64,000 bases of DNA from Acidobacteriota bacterium (lineage in GTDB: Bacteria; Acidobacteriota; Terriglobia; Acidiferrales; UBA7541): assembly GCA_003223215.1 (NCBI GenBank), contig QHYH01000081.1, forward strand, positions 1 to 64,000. The letters run 5' to 3'. The position numbers were made by a program, and so were the translations under genes. The notes under the pieces are model-generated. The model worked only from the letters and a program-made list of their open reading frames with translations, made no database searches and was not told the origin of the DNA. The first letter of the stretch is position 1. Each line of letters starts with the position of its first letter. Positions 1-8,780 of this stretch are shown in pieces.

Positions 1-1
1 T

Positions 2-181
2 ACGCATGAGCGAGAACTCTTGCGCCTGTCACGTGAAATAGACGCCATCAGAGAACGACACAATTCTTCCTGGAGGGGTGGCTCGCCGCAGAGGGAACAC
101 TCTGTGGCACACAGCGACGTTCTGCGCCGTGGAAGGCTGTTGATCGGCTCAGGAATCAAAAATCATCGCGCAGAATGGTGA
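2..181 (+). CDS. possible 3' end of an unidentified gene entering from the left edge
   Basis: Reading frame 2 is open from the left edge for 59 codons and stops at TGA 179-181. The visible residues begin with an acidic, charged stretch (ERELLRLSREIDAIRER) that could be the end of a helix or coiled coil. The rest is Arg/Ser-rich and not recognisable. Because the start lies outside the window I cannot tell a real C-terminus from a chance open frame. Confidence 0.25.
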   Translation, partial: THERELLRLSREIDAIRERHNSSWRGGSPQREHSVAHSDVLRRGRLLIGSGIKNHRAEW

Positions 182-757
182 AGTAATGACTGGAACTCAC
201 CAAGGTTATAAATTTCTGTCGCGATCCGCCAGAACAAATTTACCGTGGCCGCAACGGTTTGTGGAGGTTCATGGCTTCGCCTTAAGTCCCGTGACGTGGT
301 CCTTAGGAGATGAAAGAACCACGGTTCTACCGCAATATTTGCTATGAGGTGATGGTTCTGTTCGCATTCATGCAGAGAGCCCTTCCGGTGAACCCGACGG
401 TTCTCCTTCTCTGCTGTCCTCGGGAGGTCTCATGCCGATTGAGGCGCCTGGTCCGGCGTTGACCGAAGTGTTTCTGAAGGAGGCGCGGAAGGCCGGCGCA
501 GCGGTTATGTTATTTTCTCAGTAGTTTCCGGCGATTTTCCCGGATTCTTCTTCCACTTTGATCGTGCGAGTTCTTAGCGCTGACCGTTGCGCCGCGATAG
601 GATACTCACGTGTGTAGACAAATGGAGTATCCCACTGTGATGGAGGCCCTCCACCCTACGAGCAGCCGCCTATCGTCAATCAGGTATAAACCCGAATCCC
701 TCGATTGAAGGCCTCGTTGGGCAACATCAAAGACTCAGTATCACAACAGGAGGGATC
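182..757. other. intergenic, no gene recognised
   Basis: No frame here shows a plausible start with a ribosome-binding site or a recognisable protein. No tRNA-like or terminator-like structure stood out. It looks like decayed or spacer DNA leading to two tiny ORFs. Confidence 0.5.
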
Positions 758-859
758 ATGAAAAAGCTGCACAGACACGGAGTGCTGTTCGAAGCCATGG
801 AGACTATTCCGGAGGGCGTTCACAAAAGTGAAGCCGAGGACGCAAAGAGGCACTGGTGA
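758..859 (+). CDS. 33-residue hypothetical ORF with a strong Shine-Dalgarno
   Basis: An ATG at 758 follows AGGAGG at about 749-754, a near-ideal ribosome-binding site. The product starts MKKLHRHGVLFEAMETIPEG and ends at TGA 857-859. It is hydrophilic, has no signal peptide and matches no family I recognise. The next ORF is in the same frame just beyond the stop, so the two may once have been one reading frame, or may be a short leader-like ORF and its follower. Coding status is unproven. Confidence 0.3.
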   Translation: MKKLHRHGVLFEAMETIPEGVHKSEAEDAKRHW

Positions 860-889
860 TGTTTTTCTGAGGGAGAAAAGAAGGGAGGA

Positions 890-1048
890 GTGAGAAACGT
901 ACTTAAAATCTGCAACTGGATTATCTTCCTCCTGGGTGTTTTGATGTTCCTGGCCTCGGCGGTCGTGGGCAAAATAATAATGAGCAGCTTGGTCCCCAGG
1001 TCTTCCTCTTGTACAGCCGCAAGGAAGCAAATGGCAGGTACGTCGTAA
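890..1048 (+). CDS. small single-pass membrane protein ORF (possibly truncated)
   Basis: A GTG-started frame encodes about 52 residues. Residues about 8-30 (CNWIIFLLGVLMFLASAVVG) are strongly hydrophobic and would span a membrane once. The GGGAGG motif lies almost against the GTG, so the true start is uncertain. The frame stops at TAA 1046-1048. The +1-shifted frame stays open and reads YSRKEANGRYVVKV, which looks more protein-like than the in-frame tail. A frameshift near 990-1000 is therefore possible and the ORF may be a remnant. Confidence 0.3.
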   Translation: MRNVLKICNWIIFLLGVLMFLASAVVGKIIMSSLVPRSSSCTAARKQMAGTS

Positions 1049-1379
1049 AGGTCAAAGCGCAGCCCAATCCTGGCGTTGCGTCCAGCAGACTCCGAAACCC
1101 CGGCTTAGTTAGCGCCAATGGAAGGCAACACCTTAATGCTTTGTCGACCCTACTCGGAAGGGACCCATTTGATGTTCCGATGCGGTGGAGCCAAATTTGT
1201 CGTGGCCTCCATGCACTTTCAGCCGGAAGAGTAAGGCTGCTGCGGAACACGTATTCAGGGCTACGAGAATCAAACTGGGTGATGGCGGTCGGCTCTTTTT
1301 GCGCATCGCCGGCAGTCTTCCAACCGGACAATGCACCTGCCAATCGACACGACGGCTCGGAAGTCGGAATTCGCAGGGT

Positions 1380-1590
1380 AGGAGAAGCTGGAATTCAGTT
1401 TACTTTAAAGTGCTATCGAAAGGCGTCTGAGGCTGGCAACGCCGGCAACGCCGATGCCCAAGCCGGACTTGGACAAAAATACGAAGACGGCGAAGGCGTA
1501 GAACAAAACTATGAGCTGGCCGCAGAATGCTACCGCAAGGCAGCAGAGCACGTTCCGGACCTGAACCGATGCATGAAGCAAAACAAATGA
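1380..1590 (+). pseudogene. Sel1-like repeat protein remnant
   Basis: One frame contains about one and a half Sel1/TPR-like repeats: LKCYRKASEAGNA, ADAQAGLGQKYEDGEGVEQN, then YELAAECYRKAAE. The family pattern is A-x2-W/C-YRKAAE-x-G-x-A-x-AQ-x2-LG-x2-Y-x2-G-x-GV. After AAEHVPDL the repeat register is lost and a stop follows. Upstream in the same frame the residues look non-coding. There is a small internal duplication (GGCAACGCC twice). No signal peptide or start belongs to it. This is best read as a decayed piece of a longer Sel1 protein, which normally mediates protein-protein contacts. Confidence 0.55.
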
Positions 1591-2044
1591 CGACGGGGCA
1601 ACCCGTTGGTGCAGCTTCACACACGACCGATGGATTTTCGACCGCCGTGCGAATCGGCAGCAAGTCAGTATCGAGTAGGTCTGCTTTTGTTTTGCATCAG
1701 ACCGCGTCCTCGTTTTTCATGGGGTCCGAGCGCTTTCTGACCAGTCGTCCATGACGAGCACCCTACGAGCCATGGCCGGAAGCAAATGACGGCGGCGTAA
1801 CTAGCATCACGGCGGCAAAGCTGCGCTGTTTGCAGTCTCAAAATCACTCGGATCACGGGATGGCGCCTTCACCACTGCGTTCCTCTCGTGAAGGGTGGCT
1901 CGAAAAGCGTCGAAAACCGCGTCCTACTTCATCCGGAGTGCCACGACAGGGTTCACCGTCAGCACCTTTCCGTCTCGAAGCCGCGTCTCCCTGAAAGAGG
2001 CGTTCGCAGTGCTTGAGCCGCGTGCCGGGAAACTTGCATGCACC
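1591..2044. other. intergenic, no gene recognised
   Basis: Between the Sel1 remnant and the hairpin pair I see no credible coding frame. The overlapping ORFs on both strands have atypical composition and no family resemblance. Confidence 0.45.
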
Positions 2045-2148
2045 GTTCTTAGAGGGCTGGGCCTCAGCAATGGGGTCCGGCTACTCGGTAAACCTTCAAG
2101 TCCGGTTCTTAGAGGGCTGGGCGCCAGCGATGGCGCCCGGCTACTCGA
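2045..2148. repeat. two tandem REP-like hairpins, 60-bp period
   Basis: Two copies of a roughly 43-bp element (2045-2088 and 2105-2148) match at 38 of 43 positions. Each folds into an 11-bp stem with a 4-base loop: stem 2056-2066/2071-2081 with loop GCAA, and stem 2116-2126/2131-2141 with loop GCGA. Both loops are GNRA-type on the plus strand. All five differences between the copies preserve pairing or loop class. On the minus strand each stem is preceded by GTAG, the tetranucleotide typical of bacterial REP elements. The pair lies just downstream of the stop of the minus-strand gene at 2175, so it may also act in that transcript's 3' end. Confidence 0.7.
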
Positions 2149-2174
2149 CGAAGGTGAAAAACCACGCTTTTTAC

Positions 2175-2723
2175 TCATTGACCGGCAGAGCAGACTTGAC
2201 CGCTGTAGCGGAAGACCGTGGTGCCGCCGGTTACGTTCGGAAAGTTTGGCAAATTCACCTCGCCGGTGCTGGTGAGATCGCCGGTCGCTCCCGCGAATTT
2301 TCCGGTCCCCCCGGTAAGGTGCACTGGGTAAGTAAGAATTGCAAATAGGCCGGACGCGATTGGCACCGTAGTCGCTGTTGCTGGGTCAAAGAACAAAGCA
2401 TCTCCGGTTTCGGTGACCCAGTGATGTTGGACACGGAAGATGACGGTGTTTCCCGAGCCGGGTTGGGGCACACCGAGAAGCGTTCCACTGACGGCACCGC
2501 GAAGGTCCCCAGTGGCCGTTCCCAGCGTAGTGTTAAGATCAGCACCGAATGCCCCGAAGTTCGTCATCAGCATTCCCCCAACGGGAACGCATTGACGGTC
2601 AGAATTGGACGGGCGGCTCGGGGCCGGAGCAGCTTTGGGATTTCCGCCGGTAGAAGCCAATGAAAGAAGCAGAAGTGTCAAGGATAGGAGTGTTGCTGTA
2701 TAAGCTATCTTTCGCAAAGTCAT
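2175..2723 (-). CDS. secreted beta-barrel-like hypothetical protein
   Basis: This 182-residue product starts at an ATG preceded by AGGGAG at good spacing. Residues 1-31 form a signal peptide (LRKIAYTATLLSLTLLLLSLA), so it is probably exported. The mature part is rich in Gly, Thr and short beta-type segments. It contains GGTGKFAGATGDLTSTGEV, which resembles the GTG-x-[FY]-x-GA-x-G strand motif of allene-oxide-cyclase/dirigent-like barrels. That likeness suggests a small barrel fold but not a known enzyme activity. It stands alone, with REP-like hairpins just beyond its stop. The function is unknown. Confidence 0.7.
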   Translation of the reverse strand: MTLRKIAYTATLLSLTLLLLSLASTGGNPKAAPAPSRPSNSDRQCVPVGGMLMTNFGAFGADLNTTLGTATGDLRGAVSGTLLGVPQPGSGNTVIFRVQHHWVTETGDALFFDPATATTVPIASGLFAILTYPVHLTGGTGKFAGATGDLTSTGEVNLPNFPNVTGGTTVFRYSGQVCSAGQ

Positions 2724-3174
2724 AGTAGTCTCCCTTTATCGAGTTGGGCCGGACGGGTCGCCCCCCATGAGGAAGAGGAAGCGTGGTGCTTCCCTCACTT
2801 TTTAATTGAAGAAATGAAAAGGGTCATCGTGCGCCGAACCGACCCGGTTCGGCGCACGATTGTAGCGCAGATGGTTGCATTGGGATAGCTTTGGCGAACG
2901 ACGAAAATCCGTTTGGCATTTCCCTCGAGCCTGGAACTGCCTCGTGCCGCAAATTGGATTGCGCATTCCTATTCCTCAGCAAGTCTTTATTTGTTCCAGG
3001 CCGACGGGATGGAGCCCGCTTTCACGGCTGCCGGGCAGGCGGATTCTCCTACCGAAGCCCTGGCAGTCGCCGTAGCTGGCGCCATGCGGTAGCGCAATAT
3101 CCTTGCGCAATTGTGCGAGGAACCGGCGCGGTCTTTTGCAAGCCACACAGTCTTTCGAATCCGCGCTTGATTAA
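2724..3174. other. intergenic, possibly decayed upstream part of the oxidase remnant
   Basis: No intact gene is visible. A plus-strand frame from about 2891 stays open but has no recognisable features. It could be the eroded upstream portion of the FAD-oxidase gene whose C-terminus survives at 3175-3477. Confidence 0.35.
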
Positions 3175-5305: not shown

Positions 5306-6478
5306 ATGGTGAAATTCGGCGGAGTGGATTTCATAGATTTCGATTCGCAATTGAACGACGAGGAAAAACTTGTCCGCCAGACGGCCCGCGAATTCGTCGA
5401 AAACGAAGTCATTCCTGTCATCGAAAAACACAGCCGCGAAGCCACCTTCCCCATGCATCTGATTCCGCAGCTCGGCGAACTCGGATTTTTTGGCGCCAAT
5501 CTTCACGACTACGGTTGCGCGGGCATGTCCAACGTCGCATACGGTTTGCTGACCCAGGAACTCGAGCGCGGCGACTCGGGCCTGCGCAGTTTTGTTTCCG
5601 TGCAGGGCGCCCTGGTGATGTATCCGATCTATTCCTACGGCAGCGACGCACAAAAAAACAAATGGCTGCCGCTGCTCCAGCAGGGCAAAGCCATCGGCTG
5701 CTTCGGGCTGACCGAGCCGCAATTCGGCTCGAATCCCGGCGGGATGCTCACGCGCGCGGTGAAAAAAGGCTCGAGGTACGTCTTGAACGGCGAAAAAATG
5801 TGGATCACCAATGGCTCCCTCGCGGACATCGCCGTCGTGTGGGCCAAGGCCGAGGACGACAGAGTCCGCGGCTTCCTGGTCGAGAAAGGCACGCCGGGTT
5901 TGAAAGCCTGGGACGTCCACGGCAAATGGTCCCTGCGTGCCTCGGTCACCTCGGGGTTGTCGTTCACCGACTGCGAAATTCCGGAAGCAAATTTGCTCCC
6001 CGGCATCGTGGGATTGAAAGGCCCGTTGAGCTGCTTGAACCAGGCGCGCTACGGCATCGGCTGGGGCGCGCTCGGCGCGGCCATGGCCTGCTACGACACC
6101 GCCTTGCAATATGCGAAAACGCGCAAGCAATTTGCCAACAAGCCCATCGCATCGCATCAGCTCGTCCAGGAAAAACTCGCCTGGATGATCACGGAAATCG
6201 TGAAGGGCCAATTGCTGGCGCTGCACGTCGGCCGCCTCAAAGACAAAAACAAAGTCGATCCCTCGCACATTTCCATGCTGAAAATGAACAACGTGGCCAT
6301 CGCGCTCGAAACCGCGCGCAAAGCGCGCGACATTCTGGGCGCCAACGGCATCGTCGACGATTACTGCATCATGCGCCACATGAACAATCTCGAAAGCGTC
6401 TACACCTACGAAGGCACGAACGACATTCACAAGCTGGTGATCGGCGAGCGCGTCACCGGGATCTCCGCTTTCGTGTAA
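5306..6478 (+). CDS. gcdH: glutaryl-CoA dehydrogenase
   Basis: A 390-residue flavoprotein of the acyl-CoA dehydrogenase family. It oxidises and decarboxylates glutaryl-CoA to crotonyl-CoA in lysine, tryptophan and aromatic catabolism, passing electrons to ETF. Visible marks are the FAD-binding GCFGLTEPQFGSNPGGM and MWITNGS segments, LRASVTSGLSF, the helical KTRKQFANKPIASHQ region, and the C-terminal TYEGTNDIHKLVIGERVTG. The catalytic Glu at about residue 369 is followed by the GTxDIH typical of GCDH rather than of ordinary acyl-CoA dehydrogenases. The length matches the family. The ATG follows AGGAG with 6-base spacing. The gene stands alone, with no ETF gene nearby. Confidence 0.92.
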   Translation: MVKFGGVDFIDFDSQLNDEEKLVRQTAREFVENEVIPVIEKHSREATFPMHLIPQLGELGFFGANLHDYGCAGMSNVAYGLLTQELERGDSGLRSFVSVQGALVMYPIYSYGSDAQKNKWLPLLQQGKAIGCFGLTEPQFGSNPGGMLTRAVKKGSRYVLNGEKMWITNGSLADIAVVWAKAEDDRVRGFLVEKGTPGLKAWDVHGKWSLRASVTSGLSFTDCEIPEANLLPGIVGLKGPLSCLNQARYGIGWGALGAAMACYDTALQYAKTRKQFANKPIASHQLVQEKLAWMITEIVKGQLLALHVGRLKDKNKVDPSHISMLKMNNVAIALETARKARDILGANGIVDDYCIMRHMNNLESVYTYEGTNDIHKLVIGERVTGISAFV

Positions 6479-6755
6479 CCTCGCAAAAATCGCACAAGCA
6501 GCAAAGCCTTTGTCCGCGGCGTCCTATTCAATGAGTCCGGCAGCAAGAAGGTCTGCCCGGTCGACGGGCAAGAAGCAGGCGTCGACTGGACGAAGAAATG
6601 GAACTTCCCCCCGCCTATTTCCCCTTAAAGCGAAATAGGACGATAGGAGCCTCCCGTCCACCGCCGAACAGCCGGCATGGGCCTAACCAGAATTCGCAGC
6701 GGGAATCTTGTAAGGAGATTCCGCAGGATGTATCGTGCCTTCCGGGAGAATTGGC

Positions 6756-8063
6756 ATGCGACCTCGAGCGTCATCCCGGTTTCTTGCTTCTTTCGCACTT
6801 GGCGTTTTCGCGGTGGCGGTTTTCGCGCGCGCTCCGCAGGCAGCGCCAAAACGTCCGCCGGCGCAACTAAGAAACACGTCCGGCAATTCGTCAAACCCCA
6901 AGATCCGTGCGGTTACCGCGTTCGTTAATCTGGATTGGCGCAACTACCAGCGGCAGATCGCGGACACGCTGAACATGCTACATCGGGCGCAAACCATCTT
7001 TGAATCGCGCGGCTATCAAGTCCAGACCATCCGCATCGCCACGCAACCGTTCCCCGAATACATCCAGGGCCTGAACACGGAACAGTCGGTGGCTTTCTTC
7101 AAACTGTTGGACGCTCTCGCGGAGCAGCAGAAGTTCGCGATGTCCATCGGCCCGGCCATGCTGAACCCCACCGACCCGCCTTCCCAGGCCGACCTGCTCG
7201 CAGAAATCCTGGCCAATACGAAAAACCTGAACGGCAGCCTGGTGGTGGCCGGCGAAGACGGCGTGCGCTGGGGCGCCGTGGGCGCGGCCGCGCGGGTCAT
7301 GAAAAAACTCGAAGCCTCCACCGAGCATAGCCAGGGCAATTTCCGTTTTGCCGCCATCGCCAATGTGCCGCCCCTGGTGCCGTTTTTTCCCGCCGCATAT
7401 CACACCGGGTTTGGGCACCAGTTTGCCATTGCCATCGAGTCCGCTCCCGTCGTTGCCGCCGCGCTTAAAGACGCGCCGGACCTGGCCTCCGCCCGCCAGC
7501 GCATTACCGACGCGCTCGCCGCGGTGGCCTTCGACATCGAGCATCACGCCGGCCGCGTGGACTCCGAGACCGGCTGGAGCTATATGGGCATTGATCTTTC
7601 GCCGGCGCCCTCACCCGCGAAAGATGCTTCGATGGGCGCGGCCATCGAGGAATTGACCAAGCAGCCCTTCGGCCTGAGCGGCACGCTGACCGCCGCAGCC
7701 ACGCTTACCGCGGCCATCAGGGACGTGAAGGTCAAGCAAACCGGCTACAACGGGCTGATGCTCCCGGTCCTCGAAGATGCGCGCCTGGCCGAGCGCTGGA
7801 GCGAGGGCCGCGTTTCCGTGGACGCGCTGCTGGCCTACTCCGCGGTGTGTGGCACCGGTCTGGACACCATTCCCCTGCCGGGAGACACCACCGCCGAGCA
7901 ACTTTCCCTGACCATCAGTGACATGGCCAGCCTGTCGGTGAAGTGGCACAAGGCACTCTCGGCGCGGCTGATGCCCATCACCGGCAAGGGCTGGGGCGAA
8001 ACCACGGACTTTGCCAACCCCTTCCTCGTCAACGTCACCCTTCAGCAGTTCGGCCAGAAATAG
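6756..8063 (+). CDS. exported DUF711/UPF0210-family protein
   Basis: About 435 residues. The ATG at 6756 is favoured over the upstream GTG at 6735 because GGGAG precedes it at good spacing. It then starts MRPRASSRFLASFALGVFAVAVF, a signal peptide ending near PQAAPK. The rest follows the DUF711 (PFL-like) pattern: a VRAVTxF-like N-terminal strand, FAAIANVPPLVPFFPAAYH, FAIAIESAPVVAAAL, DSETGWSYMGIDLSPAPSP, and a C-terminal GWGETTDFANP. The family has a glycyl-radical-enzyme-like fold without a known activity and is usually cytoplasmic, so the signal peptide is notable. A DinB-like gene follows 117 bases later and may be cotranscribed. Confidence 0.82.
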   Translation: MRPRASSRFLASFALGVFAVAVFARAPQAAPKRPPAQLRNTSGNSSNPKIRAVTAFVNLDWRNYQRQIADTLNMLHRAQTIFESRGYQVQTIRIATQPFPEYIQGLNTEQSVAFFKLLDALAEQQKFAMSIGPAMLNPTDPPSQADLLAEILANTKNLNGSLVVAGEDGVRWGAVGAAARVMKKLEASTEHSQGNFRFAAIANVPPLVPFFPAAYHTGFGHQFAIAIESAPVVAAALKDAPDLASARQRITDALAAVAFDIEHHAGRVDSETGWSYMGIDLSPAPSPAKDASMGAAIEELTKQPFGLSGTLTAAATLTAAIRDVKVKQTGYNGLMLPVLEDARLAERWSEGRVSVDALLAYSAVCGTGLDTIPLPGDTTAEQLSLTISDMASLSVKWHKALSARLMPITGKGWGETTDFANPFLVNVTLQQFGQK

Positions 8064-8180
8064 TTGTTGGTAGCAGGTTTCAGGCGGTACCCAAAAAGAT
8101 CGAACTAGAGCGCCTAGCGCATGGGAGAGTTGGGGGATGGGCAATATTTTTCGAACAGGGCATGCCCCGGGGAGGGTCGA

Positions 8181-8639
8181 GTGAACACGCCGAAGCTGGT
8201 GCTGGCACTGCTGGACGAAGCGTATGAGAGAAAGACCTGGCATGGGCCGAATCTGAAGCAGTCGCTCAAGGGCGTGTCGATGGTCGAGGCGGCCTGGCGG
8301 CCCGGACCGGGCCGCCACAACATCTGGGAAGTAGCGCTGCACGCCGCGTACTGGAAATACACCGTGCGGCGCAGGATCGAGGGCAACAAGCGCGGGTCGT
8401 TCGCTCTGAAAGGCAGCAACTTCTTCCCGCGGCCGGAAAAAGGCAATGCGACACAAGCCGCGTGGAACGCTGACAAGAAGCTACTCGAGCGCGAGCATCG
8501 CGCCATGTGCGTCGCGATTGCCAAGGCTTTGCGCAAGCCGCGCGACGCCAAGTTTTTGAAACAGCTTTATGGCGTGGCCTTTCATGACGTCTACCATGCG
8601 GGGCAGATCCGTCTGTTACGGCGGCTGCAGGAACGCTAG
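8181..8639 (+). CDS. DinB-like helix-bundle protein
   Basis: About 152 residues from a GTG at 8181, preceded by GGGGAGGG; an ATG further upstream lacks such a site. It begins NTPKLVLALLDEAYERKTWHG. It has the DinB/YfiT four-helix-bundle layout with three putative metal-binding His: H in GPGRHNIWEVALHAAYWK and the C-terminal FHDVYHAGQIRLL. Family members include metal-dependent enzymes such as bacillithiol transferases, plus many of unknown role. The region upstream of 8181 is AT-neutral spacer. No operon beyond the DUF711 gene is evident. Confidence 0.75.
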   Translation: MNTPKLVLALLDEAYERKTWHGPNLKQSLKGVSMVEAAWRPGPGRHNIWEVALHAAYWKYTVRRRIEGNKRGSFALKGSNFFPRPEKGNATQAAWNADKKLLEREHRAMCVAIAKALRKPRDAKFLKQLYGVAFHDVYHAGQIRLLRRLQER

Positions 8640-8780
8640 GAGCCAGGGAGCGGAGACGGGCGCCGGAAACCGCGTGACCCGGTTCGCGGCGACCATTTTG
8701 GGGGAGACGCGGCACGGCACGGCTGAAAAAGGCCGTGGAAAGAGCCGGAGATAGAGGCTCGCGCGTAGGAGGAGCGCAGG

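What the first reader, a model, noticed from the sequence alone, without database searches (positions are those of the whole stretch)
2045..2148. Tandem hairpins whose differences all preserve base-pairing
The two copies differ at five positions. Two form a compensatory pair (C2063-G2074 versus G2123-C2134). Two turn G-U pairs into G-C. One changes GCAA to GCGA, both GNRA loops. None breaks the 11-bp stem. Such a pattern points to selection on structure. GNRA loops are on the plus strand, while GTAG, a REP hallmark, flanks the stem on the minus strand. It could be a REP family or a structured RNA not tied to a gene.
Basis: seen in the sequence. Interest (0 to 1): 0.66.

Follow-up and report, generated by a model that had tools for sequence, protein, structure and literature searches.

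The report
Leftover ends of nested mobile introns
The two look-alike hairpins are the tail ends of two related mobile, self-splicing group II introns, one of which probably jumped into the other in a soil bacterium before both decayed; this is a known kind of element and mostly ordinary.

Summary
In detail: two hairpins 60 bases apart differ at five sites and no difference breaks a pair. They are not a REP family. Each is domain VI (D6) at the 3' end of a group II intron: the unpaired A in CUACUC is at the branch-point position, and copy 1 is preceded by a complete domain V (Rfam RF00029 at 2013-2089, 41.3 bits, gathering 40). The copies come from two lineages of one family. Copy 1 ends "Y", an intron that elsewhere encodes a reverse transcriptase/maturase with an HNH domain; only the HNH tail is left here. 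Copy 2 ends "X", an ORF-less relative. X sequence lies on both sides of Y (1563-1724 and 2090-2149), and Y stops at its 3' terminus inside the GAAA loop of X's domain V. Most likely Y inserted into X (a twintron) and both decayed. The 5' junction is lost. A complete Y inside an X exists in relative G005. D5-D6 stems covary across 12 copies. Same kind as Thermosynechococcus ORF-less introns and twintrons; a new example in soil Acidobacteria, low to moderate interest.

The parts
1563..1724 (+). Outer intron X, domain IV fragment (ORF-less lineage); X is cut off on its 5' side at about 1563
   Evidence: 93.0% over 157 bases to X of G023 (L061), 89.5% over 162 to X of G005 (L051), 81.6% over 158 to X of contig C20; part of it (1612-1700) matched 6 of 27 loci, all X carriers
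1725..1748 (+). Scrambled junction: the 5' strand of X domain V and the 5' end of Y should be here and are not recognisable
   Evidence: alignment to L061 breaks up here; X_G023 bases from 506 to about 540 have no counterpart
1749..1790 (+). Short domain I-like piece, possibly left from the 5' part of inner intron Y
   Evidence: 81% over 42 bases to domain I of the C20 intron, E 2.7e-4; weak
1813..2013 (+). C-terminal HNH endonuclease tail of the Y reverse transcriptase/maturase
   Evidence: 81% to residues 525-591 of the intact Y protein; Pfam HNH E 1.1e-9
2015..2048 (+). Domain V of Y, three of its pairs non-standard
   Evidence: Rfam RF00029 over 2013-2089, 41.3 bits against gathering 40; family model R1 86.5 bits, this copy being one of the 12 the model was built from
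2052..2086 (+).
2089..2089 (+). 3' terminus of Y (CUACUCGGU), to within a base or two
   Evidence: the point where similarity among 23 X/Y ends stops, consistent with in-frame joints of Y in L055 and X in C20
2090..2108 (+). 3' half of domain V of outer intron X, resuming in the GAAA loop (G^AAA)
   Evidence: 60 bases from 2090 match X_G023 543-602 at 96.7%
2112..2146 (+).
   Evidence: R1 48.4 bits at 2096-2152 with 24 model positions of domain V skipped; no Rfam match to copy 2 even at E 1

Best explanation
The hairpins are the domain VI elements of two group II introns of one family. Y is a retroelement encoding a reverse transcriptase/maturase with an HNH domain; X is an ORF-less derivative that Y's protein probably splices and moves in trans. 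At this locus Y reverse-spliced into the GNRA loop of X's domain V, making an intron within an intron. X lost its 5' part, and Y lost its 5' end and most of its reverse transcriptase. What remains is a Y tail (HNH, D5, D6) framed by X domain IV upstream and X half-D5 plus D6 downstream, which looks like a tandem hairpin. Shown by sequence: the D5-D6 identity, the two lineages, X on both sides of Y, and the 3' junction at Y's terminus. Inferred: the insertion mechanism, trans mobilisation, the order of losses, and that the locus is now inactive.
For: Rfam RF00029 above threshold at 2013-2089. In-frame HNH tail directly upstream. X sequence at 1563-1719 and 2090-2149, 93% and 96.7% identical to an uninterrupted X in G023. 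An uninterrupted Y (2,409 nt, G017) and X (860 nt, own genome C20) have termini that give one open reading frame across the joined flanks. Intact Y protein in G005: RVT_1, RVT_N, GIIM and HNH domains, TIGR04416 366 bits, nearest solved chain 6me0_C at 6.7e-186. A two-sided nest elsewhere: complete Y inside X in G005 contig 341. A one-sided one: X ending inside the Y reading frame in own contig C197. The own genome also holds a large Y-type RT piece, 80% identical over residues 2-507, cut by a contig end (C147). Covariation.
Against: The 5' junction of Y in X is scrambled, so the insertion reading rests on the 3' junction and on X flanking both sides; Y's domain I piece is weak (42 bases, E 2.7e-4). 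Copy 2 alone gives no Rfam match, even at E 1. The joined-frame test fixes the ends only to within a base or so, since a one-base shift also stays in frame, and the interrupted genes, which I recall as transposases, found no Pfam family (G017) or a below-threshold integrase core match, E 0.045 (C20). No Y sequence was found upstream of X in C197 within the 10 kb read. The locus is 2 kb from a contig end, and no reads were available to exclude misassembly. In the best orthologous neighbourhood (G024) similarity ends at 2186, so no exact empty site was found.
Confidence: 0.88

Rival explanations
1. Tandem D5-D6 repeats of one intron that give alternative 3' splice sites, as in C. tetani C.te.I1.
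For: Two D5-D6-like modules in tandem; C.te.I1 has four nearly identical D5/6 motifs in 5.1 kb, each followed by an ORF (PMC3919590 section 11).
Against: The second D5 lacks its 5' strand, so it cannot form alone. The two copies belong to different lineages, and copy 2 is X sequence that continues the X fragment upstream of Y. Copy 2 is followed about 25 bases later by the 3' end of a convergent gene (2175-2723, minus), not by an exon ORF.
Confidence: 0.04
2. Fusion by recombination or deletion between two separate intron copies, or an assembly join, and not insertion of Y into X.
For: Both copies are truncated and the 5' junction is scrambled; intron fragments are seen elsewhere (L106, L108, C137); contig C197 shows an X end followed by a Y tail with no Y upstream.
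Against: Y stops at its 3' terminus to within a base or two, and X lies on both sides of Y in the right order; a random break would rarely do this.
Confidence: 0.07
3. A REP/BIME-type palindrome family or a stand-alone small RNA.
For: GTAG on the minus strand beside the stem; stable hairpins in an intergenic stretch.
Against: Seven DNA matches on four contigs in 8.8 Mb, three of the four contigs with a domain V beside the hairpin and the fourth a D6 remnant.
Confidence: 0.01

Closest known systems
Thermosynechococcus elongatus TeI4 / TeI3 group II introns and their twintrons (PMC2882425, passages seen)
   Same: RT-encoding introns with ORF-less derivatives made by deletion inside domain IV that keep traces of both protein ends; ORF-less introns nested in RT-encoding ones; nearest solved chain to the Y protein is 6me0_C (that this entry is a T. 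elongatus protein is recalled).
   Different: There the ORF-less intron sits in the ORF of the RT-encoding one, or in an ORF-less remnant. Here the ORF-bearing Y sits in the ORF-less X (this locus, in domain V; also G005). Different host phylum.
Methanosarcina acetivorans nested introns (as described in PMC4424553, passages; Dai and Zimmerly 2003 itself not held)
   Same: Related introns repeatedly inserting into one another.
   Different: Up to five introns in a nest there; two here, and degraded.
Trichodesmium twintron Tr.e.I7/I8 (PMC4649490, passages seen)
   Same: Group II intron within a group II intron in a bacterium.
   Different: The inner intron is in domain I of the host intron and both splice; here it is in domain V and both are broken.
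Clostridium tetani C.te.I1 (PMC3919590, abstract and section 11)
   Same: More than one D5-D6 module in tandem.
   Different: Nearly identical complete modules, each with a 3' exon ORF; here two different lineages and one half D5.

Membership tests
Group II intron | Domain V hairpin (about 34 nt) with conserved fold | tested here: met
   RF00029 41.3 bits at 2013-2089, just over its gathering score of 40; three pairs non-standard in this copy; copy 2 has only the 3' half
Group II intron | Domain VI with one unpaired A near the 3' end | tested here: met
   both copies; this A invariant in 12 of 12 aligned rows
Group II intron | Domains I-IV with a defined 5' end | tested here: not met
   no D1-D4 match in the window, nor at E 1 in 1-3000; only a 42-base piece. 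So the locus is a fragment, not a whole intron; relatives have D1D4-7 (RF02012) in L026, L051, L053, L054, L055 and L061
Group II intron | RT/maturase protein in domain IV (retroelement forms) | tested here: not met
   only the HNH tail remains here; complete in L051
Group II intron | Splicing | not testable with these tools
   joined flanks of two relatives give an open frame; none tested in the laboratory
Twintron | One intron inserted in another, host intron on both sides | tested here: met
   X at 1563-1724 and 2090-2149 around Y
Twintron | Exact 5' and 3' ends of the inner intron | tested here: inconclusive
   3' end at 2089 to within a base or two; 5' end lost
REP elements | Many dispersed intergenic palindromes | tested here: not met
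   7 matches on 4 contigs in 8.8 Mb, window included; 3 contigs with domain V, one D6 remnant
REP elements | GTAG at the foot of the hairpin with a RAYT transposase in the genome (features recalled) | not tested
   the GTAG is the complement of the D6 branch-point strand; RAYT not searched

The most novel reading that the evidence does not exclude
In this acidobacterial genus the ORF-bearing Y and ORF-less X introns invade each other, and the GNRA loop of the catalytic domain V is itself a usable homing target, so that an invader placed at the host's active site must be spliced first. The locus would be a fossil of such an event.
Probability: 0.12. Interest if true: 0.5.

Novelty: new member of a known kind. 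Interest (0 to 1): 0.25.

Why it matters
It shows that a pattern that looks like a free-standing structured repeat can be the fossil end of a ribozyme, and it adds soil Acidobacteria to the bacteria in which ORF-less and nested group II introns are seen. The review seen here calls ORF-less introns rare in bacteria (PMC4424553, passages), and one large survey says that its pipeline could not detect the outer intron of nests (PMC8919778, passages). An insertion in domain V, if confirmed with an intact example, would bear on how twintrons arise.

Tried and rejected
REP family, stand-alone RNA and conserved 3' UTR element: rejected by the own-genome searches, Rfam and by the absence of any R1 match at E 1 around the relatives of the neighbouring gene in 7 of the 11 other genomes that have one (up to 1.5 kb each side, less at contig ends, plus one 7-kb stretch). 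C.te.I1-like alternative 3' ends: considered and given low weight. An exact empty site was sought in G024, whose stretch is 88% identical from 2186 on, but the similarity ends there. The weak sR35 match at 1583-1632 (16.7 bits, gathering 60) was dropped as chance. A literature search for 'inserted into/in domain V', 'within domain V' and 'into DV of' with group II introns or twintrons gave 67 papers, of which 15 were listed and none of these 15 held any of the four phrases; the other 52 were not shown, so this says little. A Pfam check of the two interrupted host genes did not confirm that they are transposases.

Full report
The two copies at 2045-2088 and 2105-2148 differ at five hairpin positions, and each difference keeps the stem or the GNRA loop. 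The hairpin is 12 bp, one unpaired A, and 3 bp more. The core occurs twice in the window against 0.16 expected.

What it is. Rfam's group II intron model (RF00029, domains V and VI) matches 2013-2089 at 41.3 bits against a gathering score of 40. The hairpin is domain VI. Just upstream lies domain V (2015-2048), with three non-standard pairs, and before it an HNH endonuclease tail (1813-2013; Pfam HNH E 1.1e-9; 81% to residues 525-591 of an intact intron protein). Copy 2 gives no Rfam match even at E 1.

Copies in genomes. The own genome (8.8 Mb, 279 contigs) has 11 RF00029 matches at E 0.001 or better, 10 over the cut-off; 150 of 639 first-look candidates were scored. Of 41 genomes (own included) 17 had matches, 15 over the cut-off. 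A model built from 12 D5-D6 copies of this family (R1) matched in 19 of 36 genomes of the genus with 50 listed matches. Sixteen score above 80 bits, in 9 genomes; 12 of these 16 are the copies the model was built from, so 4 are new (G043, G023 C85, G050, G047). Copy 2 scores 48.4 bits with 24 model positions of domain V skipped. With the intact protein, 40 loci were found in named genomes: 12 are acidobacterial MAGs (75-100% identity, several labelled gp2 or gp1) and 28 lie in other groups such as Chloroflexi and Proteobacteria (47-65%). Contig lengths tie G005 to isolate gp2 AA85 and G017 to gp2 AA104 (inference).

Two lineages. Y is a retroelement: 2,409 nt in G017 (L055) and 2,413 nt in G005. 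The G005 protein has 591 aa with RVT_N, RVT_1, GIIM and HNH domains, TIGR04416 at 366 bits, and 6me0_C as nearest solved chain (E 6.7e-186). X is an ORF-less relative: 860 nt in own contig C20 and a shorter, 602-nt form in G023. Joining the flanks of Y in G017 and of X in C20 gives one open frame across each joint. A one-base shift would also stay in frame, so the ends are known to within a base or so. I recall the interrupted genes as transposases; Pfam gave nothing for the first and a below-threshold integrase core match (E 0.045) for the second. X's domain IV resembles both ends of Y's reading frame around a linker of its own. The linker matched 6 of 27 loci given, all X carriers, and no locus with Y alone, which suggests one origin for X; two loci with X-like ends, L059 and L105, did not match it (L105 is cut by its contig end; L059 keeps X only from about its base 560). 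Two further internally deleted Y copies occur (L108, the same locus as L053: Y 1-724 joined to 2298-2406; L106: 53-108 joined to 2210-2406).

The nest. Window 1563-1719 matches X_G023 350-505 at 93%, and 2090-2149 matches X_G023 543-602 at 96.7%. Between them lies the Y tail, which stops at 2089, where similarity among X/Y ends stops in general. X resumes inside the GAAA loop of its domain V. The upstream junction is scrambled: the X bases that hold the 5' strand of domain V, and Y's 5' end, are not recognisable, and a 42-base domain I-like piece lies there. Another nest is clear on both sides: in G005 a complete Y interrupts X at the place that corresponds to Y bases 353-356. A third is one-sided: in own contig C197 an X fragment ends and the Y reading frame begins at Y base about 2058, before the HNH tail, but no Y sequence was found on the other side of X in the 10-kb stretch read, which has a run of N about 280 bases beyond. 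Of 23 X/Y-type 3' ends examined, 3 have a 3' flank that is another X/Y intron, one of them in domain V. Left out of the 23: L065, L053, L069 and L071, which repeat others; L067, cut by its contig end; copy 2 itself; the D6 remnant C137; and L052, of another class.

Structure under selection. On the 12-row alignment 97.9% of 336 cells pair, 13 of 28 pairs show changes on both sides, and the covariation score is 0.400 against 0.152 shuffled, with 0 of 500 shuffles reaching it; slid structures pair at 31-47%. The structure was taken from Rfam's model and from the fold of the window copies, and the rows are related, so the shuffle count is not a probability. For domain VI 99.4% of cells pair. This shows selection in the family, not at this decayed locus.

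Neighbourhood. The convergent gene at 2175-2723 (minus) has relatives in 12 of 36 genomes including its own. The seven relatives' loci that were made (L116-L122) and a longer stretch around L116 (L123) have no R1 match at E 1. The element is not part of that gene.

Comparison with what is known. ORF-less derivatives moved by a relative's protein, and introns nested in introns, are described for Thermosynechococcus (PMC2882425, passages) and reviewed in PMC4424553 (passages). The Trichodesmium inner intron lies in domain I (PMC4649490, passages). In the passages seen there was no bacterial case with the inner intron in domain V; the phrase search (15 of 67 papers listed) says little about absence.

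Verdict: a real feature, correctly seen, guessed as REP or free RNA. It is most likely a decayed twintron of a known kind in soil Acidobacteria.

Noticed in passing
L051 (G005 contig 341) 5898-9151: A nearly complete nested pair: an ORF-less intron X carrying a full Y intron (6255-8667) with an uninterrupted 591-aa RT/maturase-HNH reading frame.
   Followed up: yes
L018 (G000 contig C197) 8470-9000, minus strand: In the window's own genome a 5'-truncated X ends directly against the Y reading frame, before the HNH tail; Y sequence on the other side of X was not found.
   Followed up: yes
L070 1-2681: A piece matching Y bases about 243-436, then a run of N, then a full-length Y: possibly another nest or tandem, cut by the contig end.
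   Followed up: partly
L052 (G011 contig 59) 1944-2548: Two other group II introns head to tail: one D5-D6 ends at 2019 and a D1D4-3 match begins at 2064, followed by a second D5-D6 at 2472-2548.
   Followed up: no
L106 (G050 contig 156) about 1016-1267: Another Y copy with nearly all of its middle deleted (domain I piece joined to HNH tail), at a different breakpoint from the window copy.
   Followed up: partly
window 1009-1590: An ORF with a Sel1 repeat (Pfam E 1e-9) whose last codons, from 1563, are intron X sequence, so its 3' end is probably replaced by the intron fragment.
   Followed up: partly
G002: 15 group II intron 3' ends in one genome, 6 of them starting within 65 bases of a contig's first base, suggesting that introns break this assembly.
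   Followed up: no
L051 1805-1969, minus strand: A molybdenum/tungsten cofactor riboswitch match (48.8 bits, gathering 36).
   Followed up: no
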